The notes under the pieces: model-generated | What the model saw: only the letters and a program-made list of their open reading frames with translations | What the model was told of the DNA's origin: nothing | Databases searched by the model: none | Program-made: the position numbers and the translations under genes | NCBI RefSeq assembly: GCF_900102815.1 | Contig: NZ_FNGF01000002.1 | Coordinates: 930,001 to 994,000, forward strand | Direction of reading: 5' to 3' | DNA: 64,000 bases | Source: Glycomyces sambucus | GTDB lineage: Bacteria; Actinomycetota; Actinomycetes; Mycobacteriales; Micromonosporaceae | Shown here: positions 18,552-35,584 of the stretch, piece after piece | How positions within the stretch are numbered: the first letter of the stretch is position 1 | How the letters are laid out: each line of letters starts with the position of its first letter

Positions 18552-18650
18552 CGTGGCGCCCGCCGGGCCGGCGCCGCCGCGCGGGCGGGGCCGGTCCCGG
18601 CGCCCATGGCGTGCAGGGCGTTCGGCCGCAACCATTCCCCTGCGACCGGG

Positions 18651-18917
18651 TCAGACCAGGAAGCACGCCTCGTCGGCGTGGTCGGGGTCGACGCGGATCG
18701 ACACGAGCCGGTCGAAGCACTTGACGTGCCCGTTCCACTCCAGCGCCTCCGTGCAGGCGAGGTAGACGTTCGGGCCGACGATGTACCCGTGGTCGCTCAG
18801 GAACCCCGTGCAGTCGAGGACGCCGGCCTGGGCGGGCGCGGGCGCGGAGAGCGCGAGGCCCCCCGCGAGCGCGAGCGCCGCCAGGCCCTGGACCGTGCGT
18901 CGAGCGAGTACGGACAT
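18651..18917 (-). CDS. Small secreted four-cysteine protein
   Basis: 88 residues starting at ATG 18917 behind a GAAGGAG site. A Sec signal peptide (LARR n-region, Ala/Leu core, AQA cleavage) leaves a mature protein of about 58 residues with four Cys (LDCTG, LACTE, VKCFD, EACFL), probably two disulfides. I recognise no family. It lies between the first sulfotransferase and the SARP gene but lacks the 11-bp repeats that mark the SARP-dependent promoters. Confidence 0.72.
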   Translation of the reverse strand: MSVLARRTVQGLAALALAGGLALSAPAPAQAGVLDCTGFLSDHGYIVGPNVYLACTEALEWNGHVKCFDRLVSIRVDPDHADEACFLV

Positions 18918-19190
18918 GCGGGTCTCCTTCGCAGTCGAGGCCCCCACCGGAGGCTCGTCGAGCGTAGGAGGCGCCGGGACGCCCCGCCGGGGGAACGCGG
19001 GAACCCGGACTGGCGGATACCCGACACGTCCTCGGCCGCTTCACCTCCGGCGGGTCGCCGCCGACCGGACGGTGCCCGCGGCAGCCGCCGAAGCCGACCG
19101 GGCGCCGTGGGTCCGGTGCGCATCACGACGCCCGCCCGCTTCGGGCCCGGTGGGCGCTCGCTTCCCCCGCATGAGCGGGTTGGGGCGCTT

Positions 19191-19196
19191 TATGAT
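19191..19196 (+). promoter_or_regulatory. -10 element for a leaderless SARP transcript
   Basis: TATGAT ends six bases before the SARP ATG at 19203, so the transcript likely starts at the AUG; no Shine-Dalgarno sequence is present. No clear -35 hexamer is seen. Confidence 0.6.
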
Positions 19197-19202
19197 GCAC
19201 GG

Positions 19203-22004
19203 ATGCCCCTCTCACGGCCCGCCGAGCCCACGCCGGCAGACGCCTCCGAACACTGCTCCGTGACGATCCTGGGCGAAGTCGGCGCCGTTGTGGACGGGTC
19301 GGAGGTCCCGGTGACCTCCCACCGGCTCCGAGCCCTGCTCGCGGGCCTGGCGGTCTCGGCCGACGCGACGGTGTCCTTCGACCGGCTCGCCGAGATCGTG
19401 TGGGGCGAGGACTTCCCCGGCAACGTGCGCCGCAGCCTCCAGACGTATCTCAGCCGGCTGCGCGCCGCGCTCGGGACGGGACGCGTCCTCACCTCTTCTT
19501 CCGGGGCGCGTCTTCGCGTCGATCCCGAGGACGTGGACGCGCTCCGATTCGAGCACCTGCTCGACCGGGCCGCCGCGGCGGGGGACGGCGAGGCGTACCC
19601 GCTCTTGGAAGAGGCCCTGGGTCTGTGGCGCGGCGAGCCGTTCACCGGGCTCGAGTCGCGGCTCCTGCTGGAGACCGATGCGCCCCGCCTGGTCGAGCGC
19701 CGCCTGGCCGCGATCGAACGCCTCGTCGACCTCGACCTCGCCGCCGGGCGGGCCGGCTCGCGCATCGCGGAACTGCGCGCCCTCGCCGCCGCGTACCCGC
19801 TGCGCGAGTCGCTGTGGACGCGGCTCGTCCTCGCCCTGTCGGCCACCGGCCGGGGCGCCGAGGCGCTGGAGGCGTACGAGACCGTGCGGACCCGTCTCGC
19901 CGAGGAGCTGGGCGCCGACCCCGGCGCCGATCTGCAACGGCTGCACCGCGAACTGCTCACCGAGGGCGCCGAGCCGCCCCCGTCCCCGCAGTCGGCGCCG
20001 CGGCCGGTGCCGGTGCCGCGGCAGCTCCCCATGGACGTCGACCACTTCGTCGGCCGCATCGACGAGCTGAAGGAACTCGAAGCGCTCGTGGCCGCCCCCT
20101 CCGGGCGGGGCTCGAAGGTCGCGGTCGTCACCGGCATGGCGGGGGTCGGCAAGACCTCCCTCGTCGTGCACTTCGCGCACCGGGCCGCCCCGAGGTTCCC
20201 CGACGGGCAGCTCTACATCGACCTCGCCGGATTCGGGCCCCGACCGCCGGTCGGGACCGACGAGGCCGTGCGGCGGCTGCTCGACGCCTTCGCCGTTCCG
20301 CCCGAACACGTCCCCGAAGACCTCGACGCCCGCGCGGGCCTCTACCGCAGCATCACCGCAGGGAAGCGCCTGCTCGTCGTCCTCGACAACGCCGCGGACC
20401 CCGAGCACGTGCGCGCCCTCCTCCCCGGCGGCCCCGGCTGCTTCACCCTCGTCGCCAGCCGCGACCGGCTCGGCGGCCTGGTCGCCGCCACCGCCGCCCA
20501 CCCGCTCCCGGTCGAGCCGGTGCCGCCCGCCGACGCCCGGCAGATGTTCATGCGCCGCATCGGCCCCGACCGCGCCGCACGCGAACGCGCGGCGTTTGAC
20601 GTGCTCGTCCAGCGCTGCTCCGGGCTGCCGCTCGCGCTCGCCGTCGCGTCGGCGCGCGCCGCCACCGCCGCCCACCTGCCGCTGTCGGACCTCACCGCGA
20701 CCCTGTCCTCCCCGGTCGGCGTCCTCGACGGACTCGCCGGGCACGGGCCGGACCTGCGCGCCGTCTTCTCCTGGTCGTACCGCGGGCTCGGCGAGGACGC
20801 CGCGCGGCTGTTCCGGAGCCTCGGCACCGTCCCCGGCGCCGAGCTCACCGCAGAGGCGGCGGCGAGCCTCGCCGGGCTCACCGTCGCCCAGGCCGCGGTG
20901 GCGCTGGGCGAACTCGCCCGCGCCAGCCTCGCCGCCGAGCGCCCCGGCGGCAGGATCACCCTGCACGACCTCCTGTGCGCGTACGCGGCCACGCTGGCCG
21001 AGGAGTGCGACGACGACGCCGGCATCGCCGCGGCGATCGGTCGCCTCTGCGACCACTACACGCACACCGCGCACCGGGCCGACGCGCTCCTGGACCCGCA
21101 GCGGGACCCGATCGCCCTGCCCGAGCCGACCGTTCCCGTGCGCGAGCTGCCCGACCGCGACGCGGCCCTGGCCTGGTTCGCGCACGAGCGGCACACCTTG
21201 GCCAGGCTGGTGCGCCTGGCCGCCGATCGCGGATTCGACCGCCGGTGCTGGCGGCTGGCCTGGGCGATGACGACCTACCTCGACCTGTCGAGCCTCTGGG
21301 AGGACTGGGCCGCCACCCAGCGCCTCGCGGCCGCCGCCGCGGCCCGCGAGGGCGAGCCGGCGCAGGTCGCGCTGTCGCGCCGGCTGCTCGGACGCGCGCT
21401 GGTCCGCATGGACCGGCTCGGCGAGGCGACCGGCCAGTTCCTGTCCGCGCTCGACCACTACGCGATCGCGCCCGACCCCGTCGGCGAGGCGATGACGTAC
21501 ATCAACCTCGGCTGGCTCGAAGAGACCCGCCTCGACTTCCAGGCCGCTCTGCGGCACAACCGGTGCGCACTGGACCGGTTCGAGGCGGCCGGGCACGTCG
21601 TCGGCCAGTCCAGGGCGCTCAACGCGCTCGGCTGGGACCACCTCAGACTCGGCGAGTTCGAACCGGCGCGCGAACTGTGCGAGACCGCCCTCGAACTCCA
21701 GATCCGGCTCGGCGACCGCCGCGGCGAGGCCGAGACCCTCGACAGCCTCGCCCATGTCCACCACGGGCTCGGTGCGCACGCCGAGGCCGAAGCGCACCTG
21801 GTCCGGGCGATCGGGATCTTCCGCGAGGTCGGCGACCGCTACAACGAGGCCGACCTGTACGGGACCCTCGCCGGCTTCCGCGAAGGATGGGGCGACGCCG
21901 ACGGGGCGCGCATCGCCCGCGACCGCGCCGCCGCGCTCCTTGAAGCGATCGAGCACGCCGGCGCACCCGAAGCCGGAGAGGGGCCCCAGGGATCCGGCTC
22001 CTGA
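19203..22004 (+). CDS. SARP-family pathway activator with NB-ARC ATPase and TPR domains (AfsR type)
   Basis: 933 residues. Residues about 15-110 are the winged-helix DNA-binding domain (VTSHRLRALLAGLAV, RRSLQTYLSRLRAALG), 115-260 the bacterial transcriptional activation domain, about 280-560 an NB-ARC ATPase with Walker A GMAGVGKTS near 312 and LLVVLDNA as Walker B, and 650-920 TPR repeats (INLGWLEE, NALGWDHLRLGEF, DSLAHVHHGLG). AfsR-type SARPs bind heptameric direct repeats spaced 11 bp and recruit RNA polymerase. Four matching promoters occur within the next 17 kb, so this is very probably the activator of the lanthipeptide genes. It ends 60 bp before the first repeat array. Confidence 0.93.
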   Translation: MPLSRPAEPTPADASEHCSVTILGEVGAVVDGSEVPVTSHRLRALLAGLAVSADATVSFDRLAEIVWGEDFPGNVRRSLQTYLSRLRAALGTGRVLTSSSGARLRVDPEDVDALRFEHLLDRAAAAGDGEAYPLLEEALGLWRGEPFTGLESRLLLETDAPRLVERRLAAIERLVDLDLAAGRAGSRIAELRALAAAYPLRESLWTRLVLALSATGRGAEALEAYETVRTRLAEELGADPGADLQRLHRELLTEGAEPPPSPQSAPRPVPVPRQLPMDVDHFVGRIDELKELEALVAAPSGRGSKVAVVTGMAGVGKTSLVVHFAHRAAPRFPDGQLYIDLAGFGPRPPVGTDEAVRRLLDAFAVPPEHVPEDLDARAGLYRSITAGKRLLVVLDNAADPEHVRALLPGGPGCFTLVASRDRLGGLVAATAAHPLPVEPVPPADARQMFMRRIGPDRAARERAAFDVLVQRCSGLPLALAVASARAATAAHLPLSDLTATLSSPVGVLDGLAGHGPDLRAVFSWSYRGLGEDAARLFRSLGTVPGAELTAEAAASLAGLTVAQAAVALGELARASLAAERPGGRITLHDLLCAYAATLAEECDDDAGIAAAIGRLCDHYTHTAHRADALLDPQRDPIALPEPTVPVRELPDRDAALAWFAHERHTLARLVRLAADRGFDRRCWRLAWAMTTYLDLSSLWEDWAATQRLAAAAAAREGEPAQVALSRRLLGRALVRMDRLGEATGQFLSALDHYAIAPDPVGEAMTYINLGWLEETRLDFQAALRHNRCALDRFEAAGHVVGQSRALNALGWDHLRLGEFEPARELCETALELQIRLGDRRGEAETLDSLAHVHHGLGAHAEAEAHLVRAIGIFREVGDRYNEADLYGTLAGFREGWGDADGARIARDRAAALLEAIEHAGAPEAGEGPQGSGS

Positions 22005-22147: not shown

Positions 22148-22348
22148 ATGACCACGATCCTCATCGAGCCCGCGCGCAACGACGACATCTTCGACCTCGA
22201 CTTCCAATCGGAGGTGGACGTCGACCTGCTGCCGCACGGCAGCCAGCCGACCGACAACTGCGCGACCAGCCCCTGCGCCACCGCGACCTGTTTCACCGTG
22301 AGCTGCAACCAGTGCTGCGCGGCCTCGGACTGGAAGAGCGGCTGCTGA
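22148..22348 (+). CDS. lanA1: Class I lanthipeptide precursor 1
   Basis: 66 residues behind a GAAGGAAGTG site. The leader contains IFDLDF at 14-19, the FNLD-type box that LanB dehydratases recognise; residues 1-31 are acidic with almost no Ser/Thr after position 21. The Cys-rich core begins about residue 32-37 and has Cys at 38, 43, 48, 53, 56, 57 and 66, with ten Ser/Thr from residue 32 onward. Up to seven (methyl)lanthionines are possible, the last perhaps a tiny Ser64-Gly-Cys66 ring. No Tyr is present. The leader cleavage site is not certain; a Pro34 lies near the junction. It is followed after 82 bp by LanB1. Confidence 0.9.
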   Translation: MTTILIEPARNDDIFDLDFQSEVDVDLLPHGSQPTDNCATSPCATATCFTVSCNQCCAASDWKSGC

Positions 22349-22430: not shown

Positions 22431-25400
22431 ATGAGCAAGGACCTGTTCCGCGCGCAGCGGGCCGTCGTCGCCCGCATCGCGGTGACCCCGGCGGACCGGG
22501 CGGCCGAGACGTGGGCGGATCTCGCGCCCGACTCGCCTGGCTATCCCGACCGCCTCGCCGACTACCTGCGGCGGATCATCAAGGACCCCGTCGTCAGGGA
22601 GGCGCTCGCCGTCTCGAGTTCGAGCCTCTCGGAGACACTCGACCGGTTCGAGGCCGGGGAGGCCACGCCGGTGCCGAAACTGGAGCGGGCCGCGTTCGCC
22701 ACGACCCGCTACCTGCTGCGGATGTGCACCAGGGCCACGCCCTTCGGCCTGTTCGCGGGCGTGGCCGCAGGCGGCTTCGGCGCCGCCGCGCAGGCCGCGC
22801 TCGGCGAGGACCACCGCAAGTGGGCCCGCGTGGACACCGGCTGGCTCGCCGAGGCGGCCGAGGGCATGGAGTGCCGGCCGGAGGTCCGCGCGAGGCTCCG
22901 CCTGGTCGCGAACAACCTGCGCCGCGAGCGGGGCGACCGCCTGGAGCTGTTCTACACCCAGGAGAAGGAGCACGCCGCCGGATTCCGGGAGGCCGGCAGC
23001 TCCTCCATCCGCCGCACTCCCGCCGTGGCCGCCGCGATGCGGCTCGCCCGGCGCCCGATCTCCTACCGCGACCTCGAAGCCGCCCTGGGCCGCGAACTCC
23101 CCGGAGCCGAACCGGACGCGATCGCCGGGCTCGTCGACGACCTCGTGCGCCGGCGGTTCCTGCTGAGCGACCTCCCGCCGCACCCCACCGACACCGAACC
23201 GGCCGACCACTTCGCCGCCAAGCTCGCCGGCACGCCGGTCGCGCCGGTCCTGGACGCCGCTCGGGAGGCCGGCGAGGCGTACTGCCGCACCCCGCTGGGG
23301 GCCGGCCGGCCCGAACTGCGCGCGATGACCGAGGTGCTCTCGGCCCACCACCCGACCCGGTACCCGCCCGTTCAGGTCGAGCTGCGCTACGACGGCGACT
23401 TCACGCTCCCGCCGGCCGTCGCCCGCGAGATGGAGCGGGTCGCCGCCGCCGTGTACCGCATCGCACCGAAGCCCTTGCCGCCCAACCTGAACGAGTACCA
23501 CGGCGACTACCTCGAACGCTACGGCGTCGAGCAGGCGGTGCCGGTGCTCGACCTCCTCGACCCCGCCACCGGCCTCGACGCCCCGGCCGGGTACCGCATC
23601 CCCGCCTCCTCCCGGGAGACGCGCTCGGACGCCTCCTCGCCGTTCGACGCCGAACGCGCCGCCGCGCTCAACGAGCTCGCCTGGACCGCCGTCCGCGACC
23701 GCGGCGAACTGGTCCTGGACGAAGGGGCCGTCGACCGGCTCAGCGGTCCCCAGCCGGTGCGCGTCCCCGACGCGACCGAACTGTGCTTCAGGCTCTTCGC
23801 CGCCTCGCTCGCCGACCTCGACGAGGGCAGGTTCACCGCGGCGATGTCCCCGATCGGCGGCCCCACCAGGCCCGGCGCGATGGCCGGCCGGTTCATGCAC
23901 ATGTTCGACGGGGGAAGCGGCCTCGCCGATCCCGCGGGCCGCACCCGGCACGGCCGCGAGGTCCAACTGCTGTGCACGCCGGTGACCGAGCGGAACCGCA
24001 ACGTGGCGACCGTCCCGCGGCTGCCGCTCCCCTCCCTTCCCATGGGCGTCTTCGAGGACGAGCCCGCGGCGATCGACATCGAGGACCTCGCCGTGCGGGC
24101 CGACCACCACGGCTTCTACCTCGTGCGGCTCTCGACCGGCGACGTGGTGCGGCCGGTCCTGCCGCACATGCTCAACACCAGGCACCAGTACCCGAACGTG
24201 GTGCAGCTCCTCCTCGACATCGAGCAGTCCTCGGCCGCGCCCGCCGCCCGCTGGTGGGACTGGGGACGCCTCGACCGGCTGCCGTACCTGCCCCGCGTCA
24301 GATACGGCAGGACCGTCCTCTCCCCGGCGCGGTGGCGCCCGGGCGCCGCGCTCGGCCGCGATGAGGACCGGTTGGACGACCGGCTGTCCGCGTGGCGCGA
24401 ACGCTGGGACGTGCCCGCGCGCGTCGAGGCCGTCCTCCGCGACCAGCGCCTCGAACTCAACCTCGACTCCGGGCTCCACCGCACCATGCTCCAGCGGGAG
24501 CTGCACCGCAGTCCCGACCTGGTGCTGCACGAGAGCCTCACCGGCGAAGGCGCGGGACTGCGGTGGCTCGACGGGCGCGCCGCCGAGTTCATCGTCCAGC
24601 TCGACGCCGCCGACCCCGCCCCGGCCCGCCCCGACCGTGTGGCGGTGGCGCCGCCGCCGAGCGCGATCCGGTACGAGCCCGGGACCGAATGGCTGTACGC
24701 CAAGCTCTACGCCGTCGAACGCAGCCACGACGACGTCCTCTGCCGAAGCCTGCCCGCGCTGCTGGCCGACCTCCCCTCCGGCGTCGACCGGTGGTTCTTC
24801 ATCCGCTACCGCGACCCCGAGCCGCACCTGCGCCTGCGGTTCCACGGCGACCCCGAGGCCGTCAACGGCGCCCTCCTGCCCGCCCTCGCCCGCTGGGCGG
24901 CCGCAGCCCGCGGGAGCGGACTCATCAGGCGGTTCGCCCTCGACACGTACGAGCCCGAGGTCAACCGCTACGGCGGCCCCGAGGCGCTCGCCGCCGCCGA
25001 GCGGTTCTTCCACGCCGACAGCGAGGCCGTCATCGGCCAGCTCCAGCGGCGCGCCGCGGGCCTGCGGCACCTGCCGCCCGAGCTGCTCGCGGCCGTGAAC
25101 CACGTCGACATCCTCCGCTCGATCGGCGAGTGGGACTGGATGCGGTGGGCGGCCGAGACGCTCCCCACCGCGGCCGAGGACCGGTTCGAGCGGCACCTGC
25201 GCGACTACGTCGACCCCGCCGGGGAATGGACGCGGCTGTTCGCCGAGCCCGGGGGCCGGGGGCTGGCGGACTGCTGGACGGCCCGGGCCGGGGCCGGCGC
25301 CGAACTGGGCCGGTTCCTGCTCTCCGGCGACCTGTCCGGCGAGGAGTTCGACTCGATCCTGCGCAGCGTGCTCCATATGCACGCCAACCGCATGACCGGC

Positions 25401-25487
25401 GTCCACAAACCGCTCGAGTACCGCGCCCTGGACCTCGTCCGCGAACGGGCCCACGCCTTCCGGGCCCGAGCGGCGGCACGCGCATGA
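22431..25487 (+). CDS. lanB1: Class I lanthipeptide dehydratase LanB1 (full length)
   Basis: 1018 residues. The N-terminal Lant_dehydr_N domain carries the hallmark RMCTRATPFGLFAG (Arg97, Arg101, Thr103), which binds tRNA-Glu during glutamylation of Ser/Thr. Residues from about 750 form the SpaB_C elimination domain (WLYAKLYAVERSHDD, FIRYRDPEPHLRLRF), ending with the LHMHANRM histidine motif. Having both domains in one chain marks a true lanthipeptide LanB rather than the split enzymes of thiopeptides. It dehydrates precursor 1 in the cytoplasm using glutamyl-tRNA. Its TGA overlaps the LanC1 ATG. Confidence 0.94.
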   Translation: MSKDLFRAQRAVVARIAVTPADRAAETWADLAPDSPGYPDRLADYLRRIIKDPVVREALAVSSSSLSETLDRFEAGEATPVPKLERAAFATTRYLLRMCTRATPFGLFAGVAAGGFGAAAQAALGEDHRKWARVDTGWLAEAAEGMECRPEVRARLRLVANNLRRERGDRLELFYTQEKEHAAGFREAGSSSIRRTPAVAAAMRLARRPISYRDLEAALGRELPGAEPDAIAGLVDDLVRRRFLLSDLPPHPTDTEPADHFAAKLAGTPVAPVLDAAREAGEAYCRTPLGAGRPELRAMTEVLSAHHPTRYPPVQVELRYDGDFTLPPAVAREMERVAAAVYRIAPKPLPPNLNEYHGDYLERYGVEQAVPVLDLLDPATGLDAPAGYRIPASSRETRSDASSPFDAERAAALNELAWTAVRDRGELVLDEGAVDRLSGPQPVRVPDATELCFRLFAASLADLDEGRFTAAMSPIGGPTRPGAMAGRFMHMFDGGSGLADPAGRTRHGREVQLLCTPVTERNRNVATVPRLPLPSLPMGVFEDEPAAIDIEDLAVRADHHGFYLVRLSTGDVVRPVLPHMLNTRHQYPNVVQLLLDIEQSSAAPAARWWDWGRLDRLPYLPRVRYGRTVLSPARWRPGAALGRDEDRLDDRLSAWRERWDVPARVEAVLRDQRLELNLDSGLHRTMLQRELHRSPDLVLHESLTGEGAGLRWLDGRAAEFIVQLDAADPAPARPDRVAVAPPPSAIRYEPGTEWLYAKLYAVERSHDDVLCRSLPALLADLPSGVDRWFFIRYRDPEPHLRLRFHGDPEAVNGALLPALARWAAAARGSGLIRRFALDTYEPEVNRYGGPEALAAAERFFHADSEAVIGQLQRRAAGLRHLPPELLAAVNHVDILRSIGEWDWMRWAAETLPTAAEDRFERHLRDYVDPAGEWTRLFAEPGGRGLADCWTARAGAGAELGRFLLSGDLSGEEFDSILRSVLHMHANRMTGVHKPLEYRALDLVRERAHAFRARAAARA

Positions 25488-26797
25488 CCGCGCCGGAGGC
25501 CGCGCTCGACCGCTGCGTCGCGCAGACCGCCGAACGGCTCGCCGATCCCGGGGCCGTGGCCGCGGCGACCGTGCACGACTCCCCTTGGATCGAGCTCGGC
25601 GACGACGGCCGGCGACCGCGCTGGCAGCCGGTGTCCCTGTCGTCCGGGGCGCCCGGGATCGCCCTGCTGTTCGCCGAACTGGCGCACCACGACGACGGGT
25701 ACCGCCGCATCGCCCACGCCCACTTGACGGCGGCGGTCGCGCACGCGGGGCGGACCGGCGACGCCGGGCTCCAGACCGGACTCGCCGGGCTCGCCTTCGC
25801 CGCGCGGGCCGCGGCGCGGTCCCCGGCCGACTACGCGACGCTGCTGGAGAAGCTCGACCGCCGCATCATCGCGACCGCCGCGACCCTGCTCCCGGCCCGC
25901 CGGCACGTGGACGGCGCCTTCCGCGGAGCCTCGTTCCGCGAATACGACGCGGTGTCCGGGCTCGCCGGCATCGGCAGGTACCTCCTCGGTCGCCCCGAGC
26001 ACCGCGGGTTCACCGCGGACGTCCTCGCGCGCCTCGTGGCGTTCACCGAGCCGCGCCGGGTGGACGGCGCCGAGCTGCCCGGCTGGTGGGTGGGCCACGG
26101 CCCGACCCCCGGCATGCCCGACGCGGGCGGGCACGTCAACTTCGGGCTCGCCCACGGCGCCGCCGGCCCGCTCGCGCTCCTGGCGATCGCCTGGAGCGAG
26201 GGCGTGCGCGTCCCCGGCCATGAGGAGGCGATCGGAAGGCTGGCCGACTGGTTCGTCGAGCAGCGCGATCGCGACTTCGGCGGCCCGGACTGGCCCGCGG
26301 CGCTCTCGCTGGCCGAGTACACCCGGGGACTCAGGCCCGATCGGCACCGCATTCCGCCCACATGGTGCTACGGCGCTCCGGGCATCGCGCACGCGATCCT
26401 GCTCGCCGGGGTCGCTCTGGACGAGCCGGCCTGGCGCGAGACCGCCCGAACGGTCCTGCGGGACGTGGTCGAGCGGCTCCGCCGCTCCCCCGGCCTCCCC
26501 GAGTCCATGCTGTGCCACGGCTGGTCGGGCCTGCTCCAGACCTTCCGGCGCGCCGACGCCCACCTCGCGGACCCGCTGATCCGGGAGGGCGCGGACGAGG
26601 CCGCCGCGCAGGCGCTCGCCGCGTTCGATCCCGAGCGGCACCCGTTCGGCTTCCGGGCCCGCAAGATGGGCGACAGCACCGGCCTCGACATGCCGGGGCT
26701 CCTCGAAGGCGCGGCGGGCACGGCGCTGGCCCTGCACGCCCACGCGCGGGACGGGGCTCCCGCGAGCGGCTGGGACGCCGCGCTCCTGCTGGCGTGA
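25484..26797 (+). CDS. lanC1: Lanthipeptide cyclase LanC1
   Basis: 437 residues, all-helical toroid. The zinc ligands are visible: Cys295 in WCYGAPG and Cys344-His345 in LCHGWSG; GLAHGAAGP and LLEGAAGTALAL are further family repeats. LanC adds Cys thiols to dehydroalanine and dehydrobutyrine to make lanthionine rings. ATG at 25484 overlaps the LanB1 stop (ATGA), so LanB1 and LanC1 are made in a fixed ratio. It ends 4 bp before the convergent ABC exporter gene. Confidence 0.94.
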   Translation: MTAPEAALDRCVAQTAERLADPGAVAAATVHDSPWIELGDDGRRPRWQPVSLSSGAPGIALLFAELAHHDDGYRRIAHAHLTAAVAHAGRTGDAGLQTGLAGLAFAARAAARSPADYATLLEKLDRRIIATAATLLPARRHVDGAFRGASFREYDAVSGLAGIGRYLLGRPEHRGFTADVLARLVAFTEPRRVDGAELPGWWVGHGPTPGMPDAGGHVNFGLAHGAAGPLALLAIAWSEGVRVPGHEEAIGRLADWFVEQRDRDFGGPDWPAALSLAEYTRGLRPDRHRIPPTWCYGAPGIAHAILLAGVALDEPAWRETARTVLRDVVERLRRSPGLPESMLCHGWSGLLQTFRRADAHLADPLIREGADEAAAQALAAFDPERHPFGFRARKMGDSTGLDMPGLLEGAAGTALALHAHARDGAPASGWDAALLLA

Positions 26798-26801: not shown

Positions 26802-28556
26802 TCAGCCGACGCCGCTGGGCAGCAGGAGCTGACGGCGCAGCATCTCGCGGTAGAGCGGGCTGGAGGCGACCAGTTCGTGGTGGTGCCCGGCCGCGGCGAC
26901 CCGGCCCCGGTCGAGCAGCACGATCCGGTCGGCGTCGACGACCGTCGACAGCCGGTGCGCCACCACGAGCACGGTCCGGTCGCGCGCGACCTCGGCGATC
27001 GCGTCGCGGAGCGCGGCCTCGTTGCGGGCGTCGAGGTTGCTCGTCGGCTCGTCCATCAGCATGATCGGCGCGTCGGTCAGCAGGGCGCGGGCGATGGCGA
27101 GCCGCTGCCGCTCGCCGCCGGAGAGCCTGACCCCGTTGTCCCCCACCGGGGTGTCGAGGCCCTGCGGCGCCCGTGCGACGACTTCGGCGAGGCCCACCCG
27201 CTCCAGCACCGACGCCAGCCGCAGACCGCCCGCGTGCGGGGCCGCCAGCAGCAGGTTCTCCCGGATGGTGCCCGCCAGTACCGGAGCGCTCTGCTCGACG
27301 TAGCCGAGCCGCCCGCGCAGCCGCCCGGTCGTCATCCGGTCCACCGGGACGCCGTCGATGCGGATGGTCCCCGAATCCGGTTCGTAGAAGCGCTCGATGA
27401 GCGCGAGCACCGTCGACTTCCCCGCCCCGGACGGGCCGATGACCGCAGTGAGGCCGCCCGCCGGGACGGCGAAGCTGACGTCGCTGAGCACCGGCCGCCG
27501 GTCGTAGGAGAACGAGACCCGCTCGAACCGGATCGCCGCCCGGTCGGGCATGGCACCGGTCGGCCCCTCCGGTGCGGAGCGCTCGGCCGGCAGCCGCAGG
27601 ACCTCCTCAATGCGCCCGAACGCGGCCAGGCCGGTCTGGAGCTGGGCGACGGCGCTGATCGCCTGGTTGATCGGCATCGTCAGCATCAGCAGGAACAGGA
27701 CGAAGGCCACCAGGTCGCCGAGGGTCATCGCGCCGTTCGCGACACGGGTCGCCCCGACGGCGAGCACGAGCAGGAACGCCCCCTGCGACGCCACGCCGAC
27801 CAGCGGGCCGAGGGAGGACTGGAGGCGGTTCAGCCGCAGTCGCGCCTCGTACGCCCGCCTGGCGCCGGCGGCGACGCCGGCGGACTCGCGGTCCTCGGCG
27901 CACGAGGCCCGGATGGTCCGCAGCGCCGACAGCGCGCGCTCGACGTCAGCGGTCATGGTGCCGAGCGCGTCCTGCACCGCTTCCGCCTCCTTGCGCAGGC
28001 GCCGCATCAGGAGGACCCCGGACGACATGCCGGCGGCGCCGGCCAGCGTGATGGCGGACATCAGCGGGTCCAGGAGCACCATCATCGCCATCGCACCGCA
28101 GACGACCAGCGCCCCGGACACGGATTCGATCAGGCCGCCGGTGAACACCGACTGGAAGAGCGCGGTGTCCGCGCCGACCCGCGAGATCAGGTCGCCGGTG
28201 CGGCGCCGGTCGAACTCCGCGACCGGCAGCCGCAGCATGTGGTCGACCAGGCGGCGGCGGGTGCCCAGCACCAGGCGGTCGGCGGTGCGGGTGAGCAGGA
28301 ACTGCTGGAGGCCGGACAGGGCCGCGGTGCCCACGGCCAGTGCGGCGAGGAGCGCCACTTGGGGCCAGACCGGTCCCGACCGGCCCAGGCCGTCGAGGAG
28401 GCCGCGGGCGACGAGCGGCTGCGCCAGCGACATCGCCGCCCCGGCGAGTGAGAGCACCGCGACCACTGCCAGTGGGCGCCGGTACGGGCGGACGTGCGGC
28501 AGCAGCGCCGCGATCCCGGCCCTGGGCGCCGGATCGGGCTCCGGGGCCGGGCTCAT
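26802..28556 (-). CDS. lanT: ABC exporter, fused membrane and ATPase domains (LanT-like)
   Basis: 584 residues. Six membrane spans occupy residues 1-310; the ATPase has Walker A GPSGAGKST near 372, signature LSGGERQR near 475, Walker B IMLMDEPTS near 497 and the AHRLSTV H-loop. There is no N-terminal C39 peptidase domain, as usual for class I LanT, so leader removal must happen elsewhere. Being one half-transporter it should act as a homodimer. It is the only peptide exporter in the locus, and has its own SARP-type promoter, so it probably exports both products. ATG 28556 lacks a ribosome site and overlaps the stop of a 20-codon ORF. Confidence 0.88.
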   Translation of the reverse strand: MSPAPEPDPAPRAGIAALLPHVRPYRRPLAVVAVLSLAGAAMSLAQPLVARGLLDGLGRSGPVWPQVALLAALAVGTAALSGLQQFLLTRTADRLVLGTRRRLVDHMLRLPVAEFDRRRTGDLISRVGADTALFQSVFTGGLIESVSGALVVCGAMAMMVLLDPLMSAITLAGAAGMSSGVLLMRRLRKEAEAVQDALGTMTADVERALSALRTIRASCAEDRESAGVAAGARRAYEARLRLNRLQSSLGPLVGVASQGAFLLVLAVGATRVANGAMTLGDLVAFVLFLLMLTMPINQAISAVAQLQTGLAAFGRIEEVLRLPAERSAPEGPTGAMPDRAAIRFERVSFSYDRRPVLSDVSFAVPAGGLTAVIGPSGAGKSTVLALIERFYEPDSGTIRIDGVPVDRMTTGRLRGRLGYVEQSAPVLAGTIRENLLLAAPHAGGLRLASVLERVGLAEVVARAPQGLDTPVGDNGVRLSGGERQRLAIARALLTDAPIMLMDEPTSNLDARNEAALRDAIAEVARDRTVLVVAHRLSTVVDADRIVLLDRGRVAAAGHHHELVASSPLYREMLRRQLLLPSGVG

Positions 28557-28734: not shown

Positions 28735-28911
28735 GGCGTGCCCTCACGTTCCGCGATGTCCGGCAGCCTCGGCCACCTCCACTCCCGCCCCGGACCGGAG
28801 TCCGCGGCCTTCGACTGCTGCGCCCGCGCGAAGCGGATCTCCGGCGAACTCGGCGACCGCTTCGAGGAGGCCGACACCCGAGCCGTTCGGTCGATTCGTC
28901 CCGGAGTGTGA
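28735..28911 (+). pseudogene. Relic of a SARP/TPR regulator C-terminus
   Basis: From 28756 the frame encodes a fragment including GSLGHLHSR and KRISGELGDRFEEADT. Aligned by eye with the last TPR of the intact SARP (DSLAHVHHG to EVGDRYNEAD), about 16 of 40 residues are identical, with no gaps needed. There is no start, DNA-binding or ATPase part, and the frame stops at 28911 inside the first promoter repeat. It sits in front of precursor 2 just as the intact SARP sits in front of precursor 1, so it looks like the decayed end of a second regulator. Confidence 0.6.
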
Positions 28912-28952
28912 AGCAGATGTGAAGCCGCGGTGAAGCGCCGCGGCCGTTGACT
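28909..28952 (+). promoter_or_regulatory. SARP-type direct-repeat promoter 3 (precursor 2 operon)
   Basis: TGAAG occurs at 28909, 28920 and 28931, exactly 11 bp apart, with GGCCG at 28942 in the fourth position. TTGACT starts at 28947, again 38 nt from the first repeat, and the precursor ATG is 40 nt beyond the hexamer. Confidence 0.85.
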
Positions 28953-28992
28953 GGCGGACGTCATCAATCCACACTTCGATCGGAGTCCGACC

Positions 28993-29181
28993 ATGACGAT
29001 GATGGAAACCCCGTGCACGACCCATCCCACGACCGCCGAACTCGACGACGACGGCTTCGACCTCGACATCCGCATCGCCGTCGCCAAGGACGCGGCGCTG
29101 CCGGAGGCCGGCTTCTCCTGCTCCTGGTACACCTGCTCGAAGTGCTGCACCCACACGTCGAACCCCGACAGGTGCTGCTGA
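28993..29181 (+). CDS. lanA2: Class I lanthipeptide precursor 2
   Basis: 62 residues; GGAG lies seven bases before the ATG. The leader has GFDLDIRI at 21-28, the classic LanB recognition box of actinomycete class I lanthipeptides. The core begins near residue 41 and contains Cys 43, 48, 51, 52, 61 and 62 with seven Ser/Thr (42, 44, 47, 49, 53, 55, 56), so up to six rings. Trp45-Tyr46 lies in the N-terminal ring region; Tyr46 is the only Tyr. The peptide ends in Cys-Cys, but no LanD decarboxylase gene is present. An unusual Cys8 lies in the leader. It is cotranscribed with a sulfotransferase, LanC2, LanB2 and a methyltransferase. Confidence 0.9.
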   Translation: MTMMETPCTTHPTTAELDDDGFDLDIRIAVAKDAALPEAGFSCSWYTCSKCCTHTSNPDRCC

Positions 29182-29222
29182 GCTTCGGCTGAGGGTCCAC
29201 TCGTGCCGAGGAGCACCGCCAC

Positions 29223-30188
29223 ATGAGCGCCGAACGCGTACTCGCCATCTCGCCGCGAAAGTCCGGAACCCACCTGCTGCAGCAGCTCATGGTGCGGCTC
29301 GGGTACGGCATCTACGGCGAACCCGTCCCGCCGGAGGCCGGCCGCGCGGCGTTCAGCCTCCGCGAGCGCGTGGAGCTGGCGGAGCGGTTCGCGGCTCCCG
29401 CCGAGTTCGCGGACGTCGACGTCAGAAGCGACACCGACGAGTTCGTCCGCCGGACCGACCGGCTGCTGGTGCAGCTCGGCTGGGTCTGGCAGGTCAGGCT
29501 CGCCGCTCGGAACCTGTCGAACCTCGACCTGCTCATGCCGGACGCCGATTTCACCATGGAGATGTCACCGCTGGCGTGGACGCGTCCGTTCAACCAGACG
29601 CCGCCGCGGTTGTGCTGGATCTTCCATTCGGTGGACATCTGGAAGATGGACCAGCGGTTCCTCCACGAGTGGACCGTCGAAGGCGAGCCGCGGATCGTCC
29701 TGAACATCCGCGACCCGCGCGACGCACTGGTCTCGATGGTCGACTTCTTCGCCGGCGAGGGCGGCCTGAAGTTCCGCAGGTTCCCCGAGTCGGCGGTGTT
29801 CGGCCCGATCCTGCAGAGCATCCCCGAGACCGCCGACCGGATCACCTACGCGCTGCACGACCCCGCCATGCCGCTGCTCGCCGACTACGAGGCGGCGATC
29901 AGCCTGCTGCACCACCCCGAGGTCTGCACCGTGGCGTTCGAGGACCTGGTCGGCCCGCGGGGCGGCGGCAGCCGGGACGCCCAGGTGGAGGCGACGCGCC
30001 GCGTCGTCGCGCACGTGGACTCCGGTCTCGACCCCGAGCACCTCGTCGACACGCTGTTCGACCCCGGGTCCTTCAGCTTCCACAAGGGGCGGATCGGGCG
30101 CTGGCGCGAGGTCTTCACCGCCGAGCACGAGGCGCTGTTCGCGCAGCGGTTCGGTCATCTGCTGAAGGTGTTCGGCTATGAGCGGTGA
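29223..30188 (+). CDS. PAPS-dependent sulfotransferase in the lanthipeptide operon
   Basis: 321 residues, soluble. The 5'-phosphosulfate loop is SPRKSGTHLL at residues 10-19, the 3'-phosphate motif RDPRDALVS begins at Arg163, and the C-terminal FHKGRIGRW (Lys288) is the conserved GxxGxW-type PAPS clamp. All key parts of a Sulfotransfer_1 enzyme are intact. It lies between precursor 2 and LanC2, 41 bp after the former and overlapping the latter by 11 bp, so it is part of the biosynthetic operon. Likely acceptors are Tyr46, or a Ser/Thr hydroxyl, of precursor 2. A small-molecule acceptor cannot be excluded. Confidence 0.88.
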   Translation: MSAERVLAISPRKSGTHLLQQLMVRLGYGIYGEPVPPEAGRAAFSLRERVELAERFAAPAEFADVDVRSDTDEFVRRTDRLLVQLGWVWQVRLAARNLSNLDLLMPDADFTMEMSPLAWTRPFNQTPPRLCWIFHSVDIWKMDQRFLHEWTVEGEPRIVLNIRDPRDALVSMVDFFAGEGGLKFRRFPESAVFGPILQSIPETADRITYALHDPAMPLLADYEAAISLLHHPEVCTVAFEDLVGPRGGGSRDAQVEATRRVVAHVDSGLDPEHLVDTLFDPGSFSFHKGRIGRWREVFTAEHEALFAQRFGHLLKVFGYER

Positions 30189-31509: not shown

Positions 31510-31523
31510 GACAGGAGAACGCG

Positions 31524-34500
31524 ATGGCGACTTCAGCGGAGACCGGGGCAGGCGCCCGCGCGGCGTACACCGCCGGGGCGTTCCTCATGCTGCGGGCCCC
31601 GGTCCTGCCCGTCGAGGAGTTCCTGTGGTTCACCGGCGCCGACCGGGGCGACTCCCCCGAGCGGCTTCGGGACACCGGGCGCGAACGGCTCTGGGAGCTG
31701 GCATCGCGGCCGCGGGTCGCGCACGCCCTGCACATCGCGAGCGCGGGCCTGACCGAGCAGTTGCGGTCCCTGGACGGGCGGGCGCCGACCGGCGCGTCGG
31801 GCGACCGGATCTTCGCGACCCTGCTGCGCTACGCGACGCGGATGTCGACCCGGCCGACACCGCTGGGGCTCTTCGGCGCGGTGGGCATGGCCCGGTTCGG
31901 GCCCGCCACCACGCTCGCGCTGCGCGCCGACCCGGTGCTGCGGACCAGGACGCGCGCCGATTCCGCGTGGCTCGCCGAGATCGTGGCCGAGATCGCGGCC
32001 GAGCTCGAGCGCGACCCGTCGCGGTTCGCGGACCTGCCGGTGCGCGCGAACGACCTGACGTACCGGGTGGGCGGGCTCGCGGTGCTCGTGGCCGGCGAAC
32101 CGGGCAGCGCGACACGGGTCACCGTGCACGTGACGCCGCCGGTCGAGGCGGTACTGAACCTGGCCCGGGACGGCATCGGCTTCGCGGCGCTGCTGTCCGA
32201 GATGGAGCGCCGTTTCCCACGGGTCGGTCGGGAACGGGTCCGCGGGCTGCTGGCGCAGTTGTGGGAGCGGCGACTGCTCATCGCCGACGTGAGCGCACCG
32301 ATGCGCTCGCCCCTGCCGGAGGCCGATCTGGCCGAGCGCCTCGCAGGCGCGGCCGGGCACGCGCCGGTCGCGGCGGACCTGCGCCGCTCGCGCGAACTCG
32401 CCGACGCCGTCGACGCGGCCCGCGGGGCCGCCGGACCGGACCTGCTCGACCGCTACGCCGCGCACCAGCGCCGGACGTCGACCTACAAGGGCAGGTCGAC
32501 GTACCAGACCGACACCGCGCTCGCACTGACCGCGACCGGCCTGTCCGAGCGCGTCGCGGCCACGGCCGCAGAGGCCGCCGAACTGGTCATGCGGCTCAAC
32601 TGCGTGAGCCCGCGGCAGCCGCACCTCGTCGATTACCACCACGCGTTCCTGGAGCGGTACGGCTCGAACGCGGAGATCCCGCTCCTCGAAGCACTGAGTC
32701 CGGAACGCGGCATCGGCCCGCCCAACGGGTACCTCGGTCCGCCCCGCGCCGTCCCCCTGCCCGCGCGCCCGCCGACACGGCACGACCGGCGCGACAGGGC
32801 CCTCGTCGACCTGGTCACCGGGGCCGTGCACCGCGGCGACCGCGAGATCGACCTCTCCGACGCGGACCTCGCGGCGCTGACCGTCTGGCCGGCCGATTCC
32901 TCGCCCGCCGGACGGCTGCCCTCGCTCGACCTGTACGCCAGGATCGCGGCGGCGTCGGGCGAGGCGATCGACCGCGGCGACTGGCGACTCGTTCTGGCCC
33001 CCAGCGCGTTCCAAGGACTCCAGAGCTTCGGGCGGTTCGCCGACCTGCTCGATGAGGACGCCCTGGCGGCGGTGCGCGCATTCGCGCGGGCCGAGGAGGC
33101 CCTGCATCCCGACGTCACGTTCGCGGAGCTGAACAGCGCGCCCTGGCGGGCCCGCCTCGGCAACCTCATGGGCAGGCCGCCGATCAGGGAGTGGGAGGTC
33201 TGCGTCAACGCCGAGCCGGCGCTGCCCCCCGACCGGCGGATCCCGCTGTCGGACATCCTCGTGGGCGCCACCGGCCACATGTTCTACCTGCGGTCGCGCC
33301 GCACCGGCGGGCGCCTGGCGGTGACCAGGTCGCACGCCGTGACCGCGTCGCAGGGGCCGAACGTCGCCCGGGCGCTGCTGGAGCTGTCGGAGGACATGTT
33401 CGCGGTCCCGTCGATGTTCCACTGGGGACCGATGAGCGAGGCGCCCTTCCTGCCCCGCCTCACGCGCGGGAACATCGTACTGAGCCCGGCGTACTGGACC
33501 CTCGGGCCCGACGCGATCGGCGGAGCGGCCGCGAGGGACGCCGACGACGGCTTCGAGGCGTTGCAGCGCTGGCGGACCGAGTGGGGGGTACCGCGGTACG
33601 TCTCGCTGACCGAGGCCGACAACCGGCTGCTGCTGGACCTGGAGCGACCGCTGTGCGCGGACGCGCTGCTGCGCGAGGTCCGCCGCGCCGGCCGGAAGTC
33701 CCGGCCCGCGCCGGTGCGCTTGTACGAGATGCTGCCCGACTTCGAGCAGATGTGGCTGCGCGACGAAAGGGGCCGCCGCTACCAGGCGGAAGTGGTCGTC
33801 CCGGTCATGCCGGCGTCGGTCCAGACCGATCACGCGCCCGTGCCGGCCGCCCCGGCCGTGCCCGGTGGCGCGGCCGAGCCGGTCGCCGCGGCGGTCTCGC
33901 GCCGCTGCCTGCCGGGCGGCGAGTGGACCTTCCTCAAGCTGTACACCGCGGCCACACAGCAGGAGGACGTCCTCACCGGTCCGCTCCGGTCCCTGCTGGC
34001 GGATCTGCGGGAGGAGGGCCTCGTCGACGGCTGGTTCTTCGTCAGGTACGCCGACCCGCAACCGCATCTGCGACTGCGGTTCCACGCCGCCGACGCCGCC
34101 GCGGCACCCGCGGCACCCGCGGTGCCGTCCCGGTGCGCCGCGTGGGCCGCAGCGCTGGTCACCGCCGGGTGGGCGTCGGACTTCGGCTTCGCCGCCTACG
34201 ACCGCGAGCTGGAGCGGTACGGCGGCGCCGACGCGTTCACGGCGGTCGAGCGCGCCTTCCACGCGAACAGCGAGGCCGCGCTCCGACTGCTCGCGGCGTT
34301 GCAGGCATCGGACCTCGAACGCGACTTCGCCTGCGTCGCGGCCTTCCACGCACTGTGCCGCAGCTGGGGTGCGGACCCGCTCGCGCACGCCGGGGCCAGG
34401 TGGAGCGGCGCCGCTTCGGACGAGGTCCGGCGGCGGTTCCGGGCCGCCCGACCGCTGCTGTGGGAGCTGCTCGAGCCGGGCGGACCCGCTCCGGACCCGT

Positions 34501-34796
34501 CCGCGCAGCGGCACGCGGCGATGCTCGAACCGGTCTTCGCCGCGCAGCACGGCGCGCTCGCGGAGGCGGGCGGCCTGGTGCGCAAACTGGCGGGCGGCGG
34601 GCGCCTCCACGGCACCGAGGGCGAACTGCTGGAGAGCCTGCTGCACATGCAGGCGAACCGGCTGCTCGGTATCGACCACGACGACGAACGCGCATGCCGC
34701 GACCTGTGGAGTCTGACCGCGCGGGCGATCGGGAACCGGGCCGCCGCCGTTCGCGAACCCTTCCGAACCGCACCGCCCACAGGGAAGAGAGACTGA
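31524..34796 (+). CDS. lanB2: Class I lanthipeptide dehydratase LanB2 (full length)
   Basis: 1090 residues behind an AGGAG site. RMSTRPTPLGLFGAV (Arg106, Arg110, Thr112) is the glutamylation-domain hallmark; the SpaB_C elimination domain starts near 799 (WTFLKLYTAATQQED, FVRYADPQPHLRLRF) and ends with LLHMQANRL. It differs widely from LanB1 outside these motifs, so the two are ancient paralogues rather than a recent copy. An Ala/Pro-rich linker near residue 765-795 separates the two domains. Its stop overlaps the methyltransferase start (TGATG). Confidence 0.94.
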   Translation: MATSAETGAGARAAYTAGAFLMLRAPVLPVEEFLWFTGADRGDSPERLRDTGRERLWELASRPRVAHALHIASAGLTEQLRSLDGRAPTGASGDRIFATLLRYATRMSTRPTPLGLFGAVGMARFGPATTLALRADPVLRTRTRADSAWLAEIVAEIAAELERDPSRFADLPVRANDLTYRVGGLAVLVAGEPGSATRVTVHVTPPVEAVLNLARDGIGFAALLSEMERRFPRVGRERVRGLLAQLWERRLLIADVSAPMRSPLPEADLAERLAGAAGHAPVAADLRRSRELADAVDAARGAAGPDLLDRYAAHQRRTSTYKGRSTYQTDTALALTATGLSERVAATAAEAAELVMRLNCVSPRQPHLVDYHHAFLERYGSNAEIPLLEALSPERGIGPPNGYLGPPRAVPLPARPPTRHDRRDRALVDLVTGAVHRGDREIDLSDADLAALTVWPADSSPAGRLPSLDLYARIAAASGEAIDRGDWRLVLAPSAFQGLQSFGRFADLLDEDALAAVRAFARAEEALHPDVTFAELNSAPWRARLGNLMGRPPIREWEVCVNAEPALPPDRRIPLSDILVGATGHMFYLRSRRTGGRLAVTRSHAVTASQGPNVARALLELSEDMFAVPSMFHWGPMSEAPFLPRLTRGNIVLSPAYWTLGPDAIGGAAARDADDGFEALQRWRTEWGVPRYVSLTEADNRLLLDLERPLCADALLREVRRAGRKSRPAPVRLYEMLPDFEQMWLRDERGRRYQAEVVVPVMPASVQTDHAPVPAAPAVPGGAAEPVAAAVSRRCLPGGEWTFLKLYTAATQQEDVLTGPLRSLLADLREEGLVDGWFFVRYADPQPHLRLRFHAADAAAAPAAPAVPSRCAAWAAALVTAGWASDFGFAAYDRELERYGGADAFTAVERAFHANSEAALRLLAALQASDLERDFACVAAFHALCRSWGADPLAHAGARWSGAASDEVRRRFRAARPLLWELLEPGGPAPDPSAQRHAAMLEPVFAAQHGALAEAGGLVRKLAGGGRLHGTEGELLESLLHMQANRLLGIDHDDERACRDLWSLTARAIGNRAAAVREPFRTAPPTGKRD

Positions 34797-35584
34797 TGCT
34801 CGCCGAAGACGCCGACCCGGAGCTGGTCGCCGAGAAGCTGATCCATCCGCAGTTCCCCCGCTCCGCCGCGTACGACCCGGTGTGGCAGGGTCGCTACGCC
34901 CTGGGGCCGAACCCGCTGTGGCTGACCGAGTCGCTGTCGGGCCTGCTCGACCTGTCGCCGGGGATGCGGGTGCTGGACCTGGGATGCGGCTGGGCGACGA
35001 GCGCGATCTTCCTCGCGAAGGAGTACGGGGTCGACGTCGTGGCCGTCGACCAGCGGATGCCGCCGCACCTGAACTGGCCGGTCATCGTGGAGGCCGGAGT
35101 GCAGTCGCAGGTCATGCCGCTCCAGGCCGAGGCGCACGACCTCAGGTTCGCGCGGGGGTACTTCGACGCCGTCGTCAGCATCGACGCCTACCACTACTTC
35201 GGGACCGACGAGCTGTACGCGGGCTATCTCCAGCAGTTCCTGGCGCCCGGCGGGGTGCTCGCGTTCGTGACATTGGGCCTGGCCGAGGAGATCGACGGCG
35301 TCGTCCCCGAGCATCTCGCCGACGCCTGGGAGCCGGACTTCCACGCGTTCCACAGCCCCGAGTGGTGGCGCGCGCACCTCGGCCGCTCCGGGCAGCTCGA
35401 CGTGGAGCACGCCGACCTGCTCCCCGACGGATGGAAGCACTGCATGCGCTGGCATGAACTGGGAGCGCAGGCGGCAGAGCCGCAGTGGCGGGGATTCTGC
35501 GAGGGCTGGGTCCGACGGTTCGGGATCGACCGGGGGCGGACCATCGGCCTGCCGCGGGTCGTGGCCCGCAAGCCGCCTGCGTGA
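34796..35584 (+). CDS. SAM-dependent class I methyltransferase (tailoring enzyme candidate)
   Basis: 262 residues. Motif I is VLDLGCGWATS at about 60-70, with an acidic end of beta-2 (VAVDQ), and post-I/II regions FDAVVSIDAYHYFG and LAPGGVLAFV. It belongs to the small-molecule/Erg6-like group, not to the PIMT-type (LanSA) enzymes that methylate Asp in some lanthipeptides. Overlap with the LanB2 stop argues that it acts on the same product, perhaps at the N-terminus or a side chain. It is the last gene of the operon. Confidence 0.85.
   Translation: MLAEDADPELVAEKLIHPQFPRSAAYDPVWQGRYALGPNPLWLTESLSGLLDLSPGMRVLDLGCGWATSAIFLAKEYGVDVVAVDQRMPPHLNWPVIVEAGVQSQVMPLQAEAHDLRFARGYFDAVVSIDAYHYFGTDELYAGYLQQFLAPGGVLAFVTLGLAEEIDGVVPEHLADAWEPDFHAFHSPEWWRAHLGRSGQLDVEHADLLPDGWKHCMRWHELGAQAAEPQWRGFCEGWVRRFGIDRGRTIGLPRVVARKPPA

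What the first reader, a model, noticed from the sequence alone, without database searches (positions are those of the whole stretch)
29223..30188. Sulfotransferase embedded in a class I lanthipeptide operon: possible sulfated lanthipeptide
An intact PAPS sulfotransferase (SPRKSGTH loop, RDPRDA, C-terminal KGRIGRW) is cotranscribed between precursor 2 and LanC2, overlapping LanC2. Precursor 2 has one Tyr (residue 46) next to Trp45 in the first ring region; precursor 1 core has none. I am not aware of a characterised sulfated class I lanthipeptide.
Basis: partly seen in the sequence, partly recalled or inferred. Interest (0 to 1): 0.85.

Follow-up and report, generated by a model that had tools for sequence, protein, structure and literature searches.

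The report
Sulfotransferase in a lanthipeptide gene cluster
A soil actinomycete (Glycomyces) and several Streptomyces carry a conserved gene cluster that very probably makes a ring-shaped antibiotic-like peptide with a sulfate on a tyrosine; sulfated peptides of this general kind were already known, but this branch, built by a different ring-forming machinery, seems not to have been described.

Summary
An intact PAPS-type sulfotransferase (ST, 29223-30188) lies in a tight operon: FDLD class I lanthipeptide precursor, ST, LanC, LanB, methyltransferase. The precursor-ST-LanC-LanB order recurs in Glycomyces harbinensis and four Streptomyces lineages. In 15 of 15 pairs of six lineages the ST is the most conserved of the three enzymes. 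Of nine precursors in this LanC clade, eight carry Trp-Tyr in the first ring segment (GFS-(CS/N)-WY-(S/T)-C) while most of the remaining core diverges; none of 22 distinct FDLD precursors without a detected ST has WY. The exception, G746, has Trp-Leu and no Tyr; its ST keeps the catalytic motifs but departs unusually often at otherwise invariant sites. One WY precursor (G. harbinensis B) has no ST of its own, only one 10 kb away. Best reading: the ST sulfates ring-A Tyr46. Sulfotyrosine lanthipeptides are already in print (SslST, SscST; recalled as LanM, class II), so this is a new variant, apparently class I. No chemistry has been shown, and a non-Tyr acceptor is not excluded.

The parts
28993..29181 (+). 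Precursor 2, FDLD class I lanthipeptide precursor; core ...GFSCSWYTCSKCCTHTSNPDRCC; Trp45-Tyr46 in the first ring segment
   Evidence: homologous precursors; alignment of five
29223..30188 (+). PAPS-type sulfotransferase, 321 aa
30178..31509 (+). LanC2 cyclase (overlaps ST by 11 nt)
31524..34796 (+). LanB2 dehydratase with both N-terminal and C-terminal Lant_dehydr domains
34796..35584 (+). SAM-dependent methyltransferase, shared with G. harbinensis (80% identity) but not found in the fetched flanks of the Streptomyces operons
22148..22348 (+). Precursor 1 of the neighbouring class I system; no Tyr; not predicted to be sulfated
22431..25487 (+). LanB1 of the neighbouring system
25484..26797 (+). 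LanC1 of the neighbouring system
26802..28556 (-). ABC exporter (membrane plus ATPase domain); that it serves both systems is inferred
18606..22004 (+). BTAD-type regulator (ORF as listed; the true start is probably further in); homologs border the ST operons in L002, L006, L007, L008 and L027

Best explanation
The operon makes a class I lanthipeptide. LanB2 dehydrates Ser/Thr and LanC2 closes thioether rings; the first ring segment (GFS-CS-WY-T-C) holds Trp45-Tyr46. The sulfotransferase moves a sulfonate from PAPS, made by the cell's general APS kinase, to the phenol oxygen of Tyr46, giving a sulfotyrosine beside Trp in ring A, while most of the rest of the core is free to vary between species. 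Shown here by sequence: the operon, its conservation, intact ST motifs, an APS kinase gene elsewhere in the genome, and WY confined to this LanC clade among the precursors compared. Inferred: that the peptide is the substrate, Tyr46 as acceptor, ring pattern, order of steps, export.
For: Same order FDLD-type precursor-ST-LanC-LanB in G. harbinensis, S. goshikiensis, Streptomyces sp. Mg1, S. globosus, G467 and G746; an FDLD feature is annotated just before the ST in all 7 Streptomyces plasmid records that hold a full-length ST at 56-58% identity (3 of these 7 opened). ST is the most identical enzyme in 15 of 15 pairs of six lineages; dN/dS 0.24 for ST against 0.56 for LanC2, window against G. 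harbinensis. WY in 8 of 9 precursors of the clade, 0 of 22 distinct FDLD precursors without a detected ST. The LanC proteins that go with the nine precursors fall in one clade, SH-aLRT 93, quick tree, midpoint root. In Glycomyces, ST and NF038155 precursors are in 2 of 22 genomes, the same two, which alone have strong LanC2 matches (about 419 bits or more; no other match in the genus exceeds 101). APS kinase in 22 of 22 Glycomyces. G746, the one lineage without Tyr, is also the one whose ST departs most at sites invariant in the other five: 19 of 152, against 10 of 118 in its LanC and 24 of 290 in its LanB; against the three other long lineages Fisher p 0.011, against all five 0.006. Precedent: sulfotyrosine lanthipeptides with SslST and SscST (passages of PMC12135136).
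Against: G746 has an ST with intact motifs but no Tyr anywhere in its only detected precursor. G. harbinensis has a second WY precursor in an operon without an ST; the nearest ST is about 10 kb away, so WY could be kept for a reason other than sulfation. The clade is one lineage, so WY and ST could share ancestry without a functional tie; the Fisher p values count related sequences, and the G746 comparison was made after its WL precursor was seen. Sampling is thin: six lineages. Tyr46 does not lie in the acidic context that I recall for eukaryotic tyrosine sulfation. No usable structure (pLDDT 35.9).
Confidence: 0.7

Rival explanations
1. The ST modifies the lanthipeptide, but not at Tyr: it O-sulfates a conserved Ser/Thr (position 42 or 47), or adds sulfonate to a dehydro residue.
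For: G746 keeps ST motifs without Tyr; a Ser at position 42 and Ser/Thr at 47 are present in 9 of 9 precursors of the clade (read from the strings and earlier outputs). [quoted passage not shown] dehydroalanine is such a group.
Against: Tyr46 is conserved in 8 of 9 although most of the core varies, and the ST of the one exception is the one that drifts. Ser/Thr in this segment are expected to be used for dehydration and ring closure. The six earlier ST-encoding clusters surveyed in PMC12135136 give products sulfated on a phenolic hydroxyl (section 6).
Confidence: 0.12
2. The ST acts on a small molecule or an envelope component, and its place in the operon is incidental.
For: The nearest outside homologs are not lanthipeptide-linked: of those at about 36-45% identity, L029, L032, L034 and L100 have a carbamoyltransferase-like ORF beside or near the ST (Pfam-tested in L032 only, the others by eye), and L030 and L031 show neither that nor LanB or LanC.
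Against: Same position between precursor and LanC in six lineages of two genera, 11-nt overlap with LanC2, ST more conserved than LanB and LanC; absent from the 20 Glycomyces genomes that also lack a strong LanC2 match.
Confidence: 0.1
3. The ST is a passenger in decay, or is used only for self-protection of the producer.
For: None direct; G746 shows that an ST can persist when Tyr is gone.
Against: dN/dS 0.24 and 133 of 320 gapless positions invariant in six lineages.
Confidence: 0.04

Closest known systems
Sulfonated (sulfotyrosine) lanthipeptides with sulfotransferases SslST and SscST (Wang et al. 2024, Acta Pharm Sin B, doi 10.1016/j.apsb.2024.02.016; only the title seen, in a reference list; further passages in PMC12135136)
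   Same: Lanthipeptide clusters with a PAPS sulfotransferase that makes sulfotyrosine; from recall, the Tyr lies in ring A and the ST needs that ring.
   Different: The ssl and ssc clusters hold a partial or complete PAPS cassette, here no APS kinase in the window; recalled as LanM (class II), here LanB plus LanC (class I). ST homology could not be tested, I had no sequence of either enzyme.
FDLD-family class I lanthipeptides (NCBIfam NF038155)
   Same: Leader motif FDLD, Cys/Ser/Thr-rich core, LanB and LanC.
   Different: Linked ST and an invariant Trp in ring segment A, followed by Tyr in 8 of 9; none of the 22 distinct FDLD precursors without a detected ST has WY.
RaxX / RaxST (sulfatyrotide RiPP; class name seen in a passage of PMC9484694)
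   Same: Bacterial ribosomal peptide sulfated on Tyr by a sulfotransferase.
   Different: RaxX is not a lanthipeptide (recalled).
AdpST (di-sulfation of adipostatins, PMC12135136, passages and section 6)
   Same: PAPS sulfotransferase in an actinomycete biosynthetic cluster.
   Different: Adipostatin substrate and a dedicated PAPS cassette.
Cytosolic sulfotransferases (SULT, Pfam Sulfotransfer_1)
   Same: PAPS-loop and C-terminal GxxGxW-type motif; best PDB matches by profile.
   Different: Remote, barely over the Pfam cut-off.

Membership tests
Class I lanthipeptide cluster | LanB with N-terminal and C-terminal dehydratase domains | tested here: met
   PF04738 E 4.2e-155 and PF14028 E 7.5e-53 in LanB2
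Class I lanthipeptide cluster | LanC cyclase | tested here: met
   PF05147 E 2.9e-36
Class I lanthipeptide cluster | Precursor with FDLD-type leader and Ser/Thr/Cys core | tested here: met
   NF038155 29.5 bits, cut-off 20
Class I lanthipeptide cluster | Thioether rings in the product | not testable with these tools
   needs mass spectrometry
PAPS-dependent sulfotransferase | 5'-PSB loop, conserved Arg/Ser of the 3'-phosphate site, C-terminal GxxGxW motif | tested here: met
   identical in six lineages except one Ser-to-Ala in the loop of G. harbinensis; assignment of motifs to PAPS sites is recalled
PAPS-dependent sulfotransferase | Pfam Sulfotransfer_1 membership | tested here: met
   22.5 bits against cut-off 22; ortholog in G746 42.4 bits
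PAPS-dependent sulfotransferase | PAPS supply in the genome | tested here: met
   APS kinase PF01583 E 8.4e-56 at G000:C11; ATP sulfurylase not searched
PAPS-dependent sulfotransferase | Sulfotransferase fold | tested here: inconclusive
   model pLDDT 35.9 with two rows, not searched
Sulfotyrosine lanthipeptides (SslST, SscST type) | ST in a lanthipeptide cluster with Tyr in the first ring segment | tested here: met
   the ring itself is inferred
Sulfotyrosine lanthipeptides (SslST, SscST type) | Partial or complete PAPS cassette in the cluster | tested here: not met
   tested by APS kinase only: the genome's matches lie at C11:430179 and, weakly, C6:820834, both outside the window
Sulfotyrosine lanthipeptides (SslST, SscST type) | LanM synthetase (class II, recalled) | tested here: not met
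   separate LanB2 and LanC2
Sulfotyrosine lanthipeptides (SslST, SscST type) | ST homologous to SslST/SscST | not testable with these tools
   the paper is not held and I had no sequence of either enzyme
Sulfotyrosine lanthipeptides (SslST, SscST type) | Sulfated Tyr in the product | not testable with these tools
   needs mass spectrometry

The most novel reading that the evidence does not exclude
The enzyme is a lanthipeptide-ring sulfotransferase whose acceptor is not restricted to Tyr: in the Tyr-less G746 branch, and perhaps throughout, it places sulfonate on a Ser/Thr of ring A or on a dehydro residue, giving a sulfate ester or C-sulfonate that I did not meet for lanthipeptides in the held papers I searched (listings capped, few papers opened).
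Probability: 0.1. Interest if true: 0.75.

Novelty: new variant of a known kind. Interest (0 to 1): 0.52.

Why it matters
It would extend enzymatic tyrosine sulfation from the published sulfotyrosine lanthipeptides to the LanB/LanC (class I) branch, with a natural series of cores that keep the putative sulfated ring and vary most of the rest, plus a natural Tyr-to-Leu variant (G746) as a built-in control. That makes the role of a sulfate in a lanthipeptide directly testable.

Tried and rejected
Structure: AlphaFold from a two-row alignment gave pLDDT 35.9; not used for a fold search. A scan of viral contigs with the ST alignment found no relative. Rejected: that any core Tyr marks the ST clusters; 7 of 22 distinct FDLD precursors without a detected ST also have a Tyr after the FDLD motif, so the signal is the WY position. 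Rejected: that the Sulfotransfer_3 gene at 17352-18551 belongs to the cluster; its family has five or more matches in each of 22 Glycomyces genomes. Considered and not pursued: that the ST activates Ser/Thr for elimination in place of LanB; LanB2 has both dehydratase domains.

Limits of the control set: 28 FDLD hits in 24 of 392 genomes of the genus of G399, which I take for Streptomyces because G1038 in it matches the S. globosus record in coordinates. Three hits are ST-linked, 25 are not. Wide flanks were fetched for 24 of these 25; the other one (second copy in G782) is identical in the compared stretch to one fetched. Flanks in L079, L086 and L088 are strongly cut by contig ends, in L083 and L084 slightly, so an ST there is not fully excluded. 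Only homologs of this ST were looked for (tblastn E 1e-5); STs of other families were not. Three exact duplicates were dropped, leaving 25 distinct, 22 without ST. The NF038155 search missed the G. harbinensis ST-linked precursor, whose motif is FDPD, so other precursors may be missed. S. goshikiensis and Mg1 precursors differ by one residue and are counted as two of the nine. Identities were computed on ORFs not trimmed to their true starts. The LanC tree was the quick kind, with long branches flagged.

Full report
What is there. The window is G000:C6:930001-994000 of a 5.6 Mb genome. Genome G008 of the same genus has a contig of the same length as NZ_FNAD01000006.1 of Glycomyces harbinensis, with the ST at the same coordinates, so the window is Glycomyces (inference). 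It starts 41 nt after the FDLD precursor 28993-29181, overlaps LanC2 by 11 nt, and is followed by LanB2 and a methyltransferase with a 14-nt gap and a 1-nt overlap. A simple scan found no terminator-like site in 28500-35900, against a mean of 1.5 in shuffles, and no sigma-70-like promoter either. Pfam and NCBIfam name the parts: Lant_dehydr_N and _C, LANC_like, lanthi_I_FDLD, Sulfotransfer_1 just over its cut-off. A profile of 14 homologs finds cytosolic sulfotransferases in the PDB at E 1.6e-6 and weaker.

Is the association more than chance? Close orthologs (53-77% identity to the window ST) were found in G. harbinensis, in S. goshikiensis, Streptomyces sp. Mg1 and S. globosus plasmids of 0.5-0.6 Mb, and in G467 and G746. 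In each of these loci that I opened (L002, L006, L007, L008, L027/L094, L028/L095) the order is FDLD-type precursor, ST, LanC, LanB, followed in the Streptomyces loci by an ABC exporter. All seven plasmid records with full-length STs at 56-58% also carry an annotated FDLD precursor next to it; I opened three of the seven. The ST is rare: 2 of 22 Glycomyces; of 394 genomes of the class, only the own one has a close match and two have weak ones; 15 of 392 Streptomyces match the S. goshikiensis ST at E 1e-10, of which two (G467, G746) at 65% or more. Two further, overlapping draws (394 genomes at E 1e-40, 266 at E 1e-90) added one close ortholog, G1038, which by its coordinates is the S. globosus locus already seen. 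In the fetched flanks of the other 13 Streptomyces loci no LanC homolog was found at E 1e-8; one of them (L036, ST 29% identical) has a LanB-like gene about 3 kb away, which I did not follow. In Glycomyces the ST and the NF038155 precursors occur in the same 2 of 22 genomes, and these two alone have strong LanC2 matches: 981, 611 and 419 bits, against 101 bits or less for every other match listed.

Constraint. In 15 of 15 pairs of six lineages the ST is more alike than LanC or LanB (for example window against S. goshikiensis 58, 45 and 43%). Between the window and G. harbinensis dN/dS is 0.24 for ST, 0.56 for LanC2 and 0.20 for the methyltransferase. The motifs are the same in all six except one Ser-to-Ala in the PAPS loop of G. 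harbinensis.

The acceptor. Nine precursors belong to this LanC clade: window; G. harbinensis A and B; S. goshikiensis; Mg1; S. globosus; G467 a and b; G746. Eight have WY in the segment GFS-(CS/N)-WY-(S/T)-C; further on the cores diverge. As a control, NF038155 gave 28 FDLD hits in 24 of 392 Streptomyces genomes. Twenty-five are not linked to a detected ST (flanks of 24 of the 25 seen); of the 22 distinct ones none has WY, and 7 have a Tyr elsewhere. Fisher p is 1.1e-6 by precursor (8 of 9 against 0 of 22) and 6e-5 by lineage (5 of 6 against 0 of 22), but the ST clusters lie in one clade (SH-aLRT 93, quick tree, midpoint root, with G. harbinensis B inside), so these are not independent events. 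I therefore rest more on the contrast between a conserved first ring segment and a variable remainder.

Results against. G746 has Trp-Leu (codon CTC) and no Tyr in its only detected precursor, yet its ST keeps all motifs. Its ST is, however, the only one that departs from the others at a higher rate than its LanC and LanB do: 19 of 152 otherwise invariant ST sites, 10 of 118 in LanC, 24 of 290 in LanB; p 0.011 against the three other long lineages, 0.006 against all five. Four of the 19 lie together at 108-116. That fits an ST that lost or changed its substrate when Tyr was lost, but equally an ST with another acceptor. The comparison was made after seeing the WL precursor and rests on one lineage. 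G. harbinensis B has WY but no ST in its own operon (precursor, LanC, LanB, ABC); the ST lies about 10 kb upstream. It could be served in trans, or WY could be structural.

Mechanism. Likely order, inferred: LanB2 and LanC2 build the rings; the ST, with PAPS from the general APS kinase (present in 22 of 22 Glycomyces, none in the window), sulfates Tyr46; an exporter, probably 26802-28556, secretes the peptide. Precursor 1 with its own LanB1 and LanC1 has no Tyr and is probably not a substrate.

What is known. PMC12135136 (passages; [quoted passage not shown] PMC13417212 (passages) cites Wang et al. [quoted passage not shown] I could not read Wang et al.; that its clusters are LanM-based, that Tyr5 of ring A is the target and that the ST needs ring A but not the leader is recalled. 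If right, the window cluster is the class I counterpart, with the Tyr in a like place. I found no report of an ST in a class I cluster, on this basis: 18 papers listed for sulfotransferase plus lanthipeptide, five of them opened for passages; three for class I lanthipeptide, Streptomyces and sulfated, two opened; no paper for five exact phrases or for sulfotransferase with lantibiotic dehydratase; other searches seen as listings only, some of them capped. Most subscription papers are not held, so this is weak evidence. Two reviews of lanthipeptide modification and enzymes hold no word beginning with sulfat, sulphat or sulfotrans.

Verdict. Real, conserved, very probably a sulfated lanthipeptide; a new variant of a known kind rather than a first. 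The open points are the acceptor in G746, the missing ST beside G. harbinensis B, and all chemistry.

Noticed in passing
window 17352-18551 (+): A second sulfotransferase of another family (Sulfotransfer_3, E 6.4e-36) upstream of the regulator; its family has five or more matches in each of 22 Glycomyces genomes, so probably unrelated to the peptide.
   Followed up: yes
window 34796-35584 (+): Methyltransferase at the end of the operon, 80% identical in G. harbinensis (dN/dS 0.20) but not found in the fetched flanks of the Streptomyces operons; its target is unknown.
   Followed up: partly
window 35668-35817 (-): Small ORF (49 aa) with a signal-peptide-like start, judged by eye, and Cys-Cys near its end, next to the operon on the other strand; no Pfam or NCBIfam match.
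   Followed up: no
L002:20636-20845 and L107:3153-9709: G. harbinensis has a second operon, WY precursor-LanC-LanB-ABC without ST, about 10 kb from the ST operon: possibly a two-peptide system.
   Followed up: partly
L036, L038, L039, L040, L041 and L004: Distant ST homologs (about 27-33%) in Streptomyces lie near a small, apparently secreted peptide ending in LPLSLPRNHCGxSGIVCTAVF or close variants; a possible separate ST-peptide system.
   Followed up: no
L036:2115-5408: A LanB-like gene (37% to LanB1) about 3 kb from a distant ST homolog; relation unknown.
   Followed up: no
L033 (ST at 8027-8980, -): An ST homolog of 33-34% identity beside an apparently secreted peptide with several Tyr (GLPAYDNYC...); could be another sulfated peptide.
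   Followed up: no
L032, L034, L100 (also L029): ST homologs (about 31-45%) near carbamoyltransferase-like and transporter-like ORFs, with an APS kinase in L032 (Pfam) and ORFs that look like it in L034 and L100: a likely sulfated small-molecule cluster.
   Followed up: partly
L006:8063-9622, L007:8053-9483, L008:6054-7622, L027: A PqqD-domain / HEXXH-motif protein sits upstream of the precursor in these Streptomyces clusters; it was not found in L002 (G. harbinensis) or L028 (G746), and the window was not searched for it.
   Followed up: no
window 22148-22348 (+): Precursor 1 has a weak, sub-threshold match to the elgicin/penisin lantibiotic family (16.9 bits, cut-off 40).
   Followed up: no
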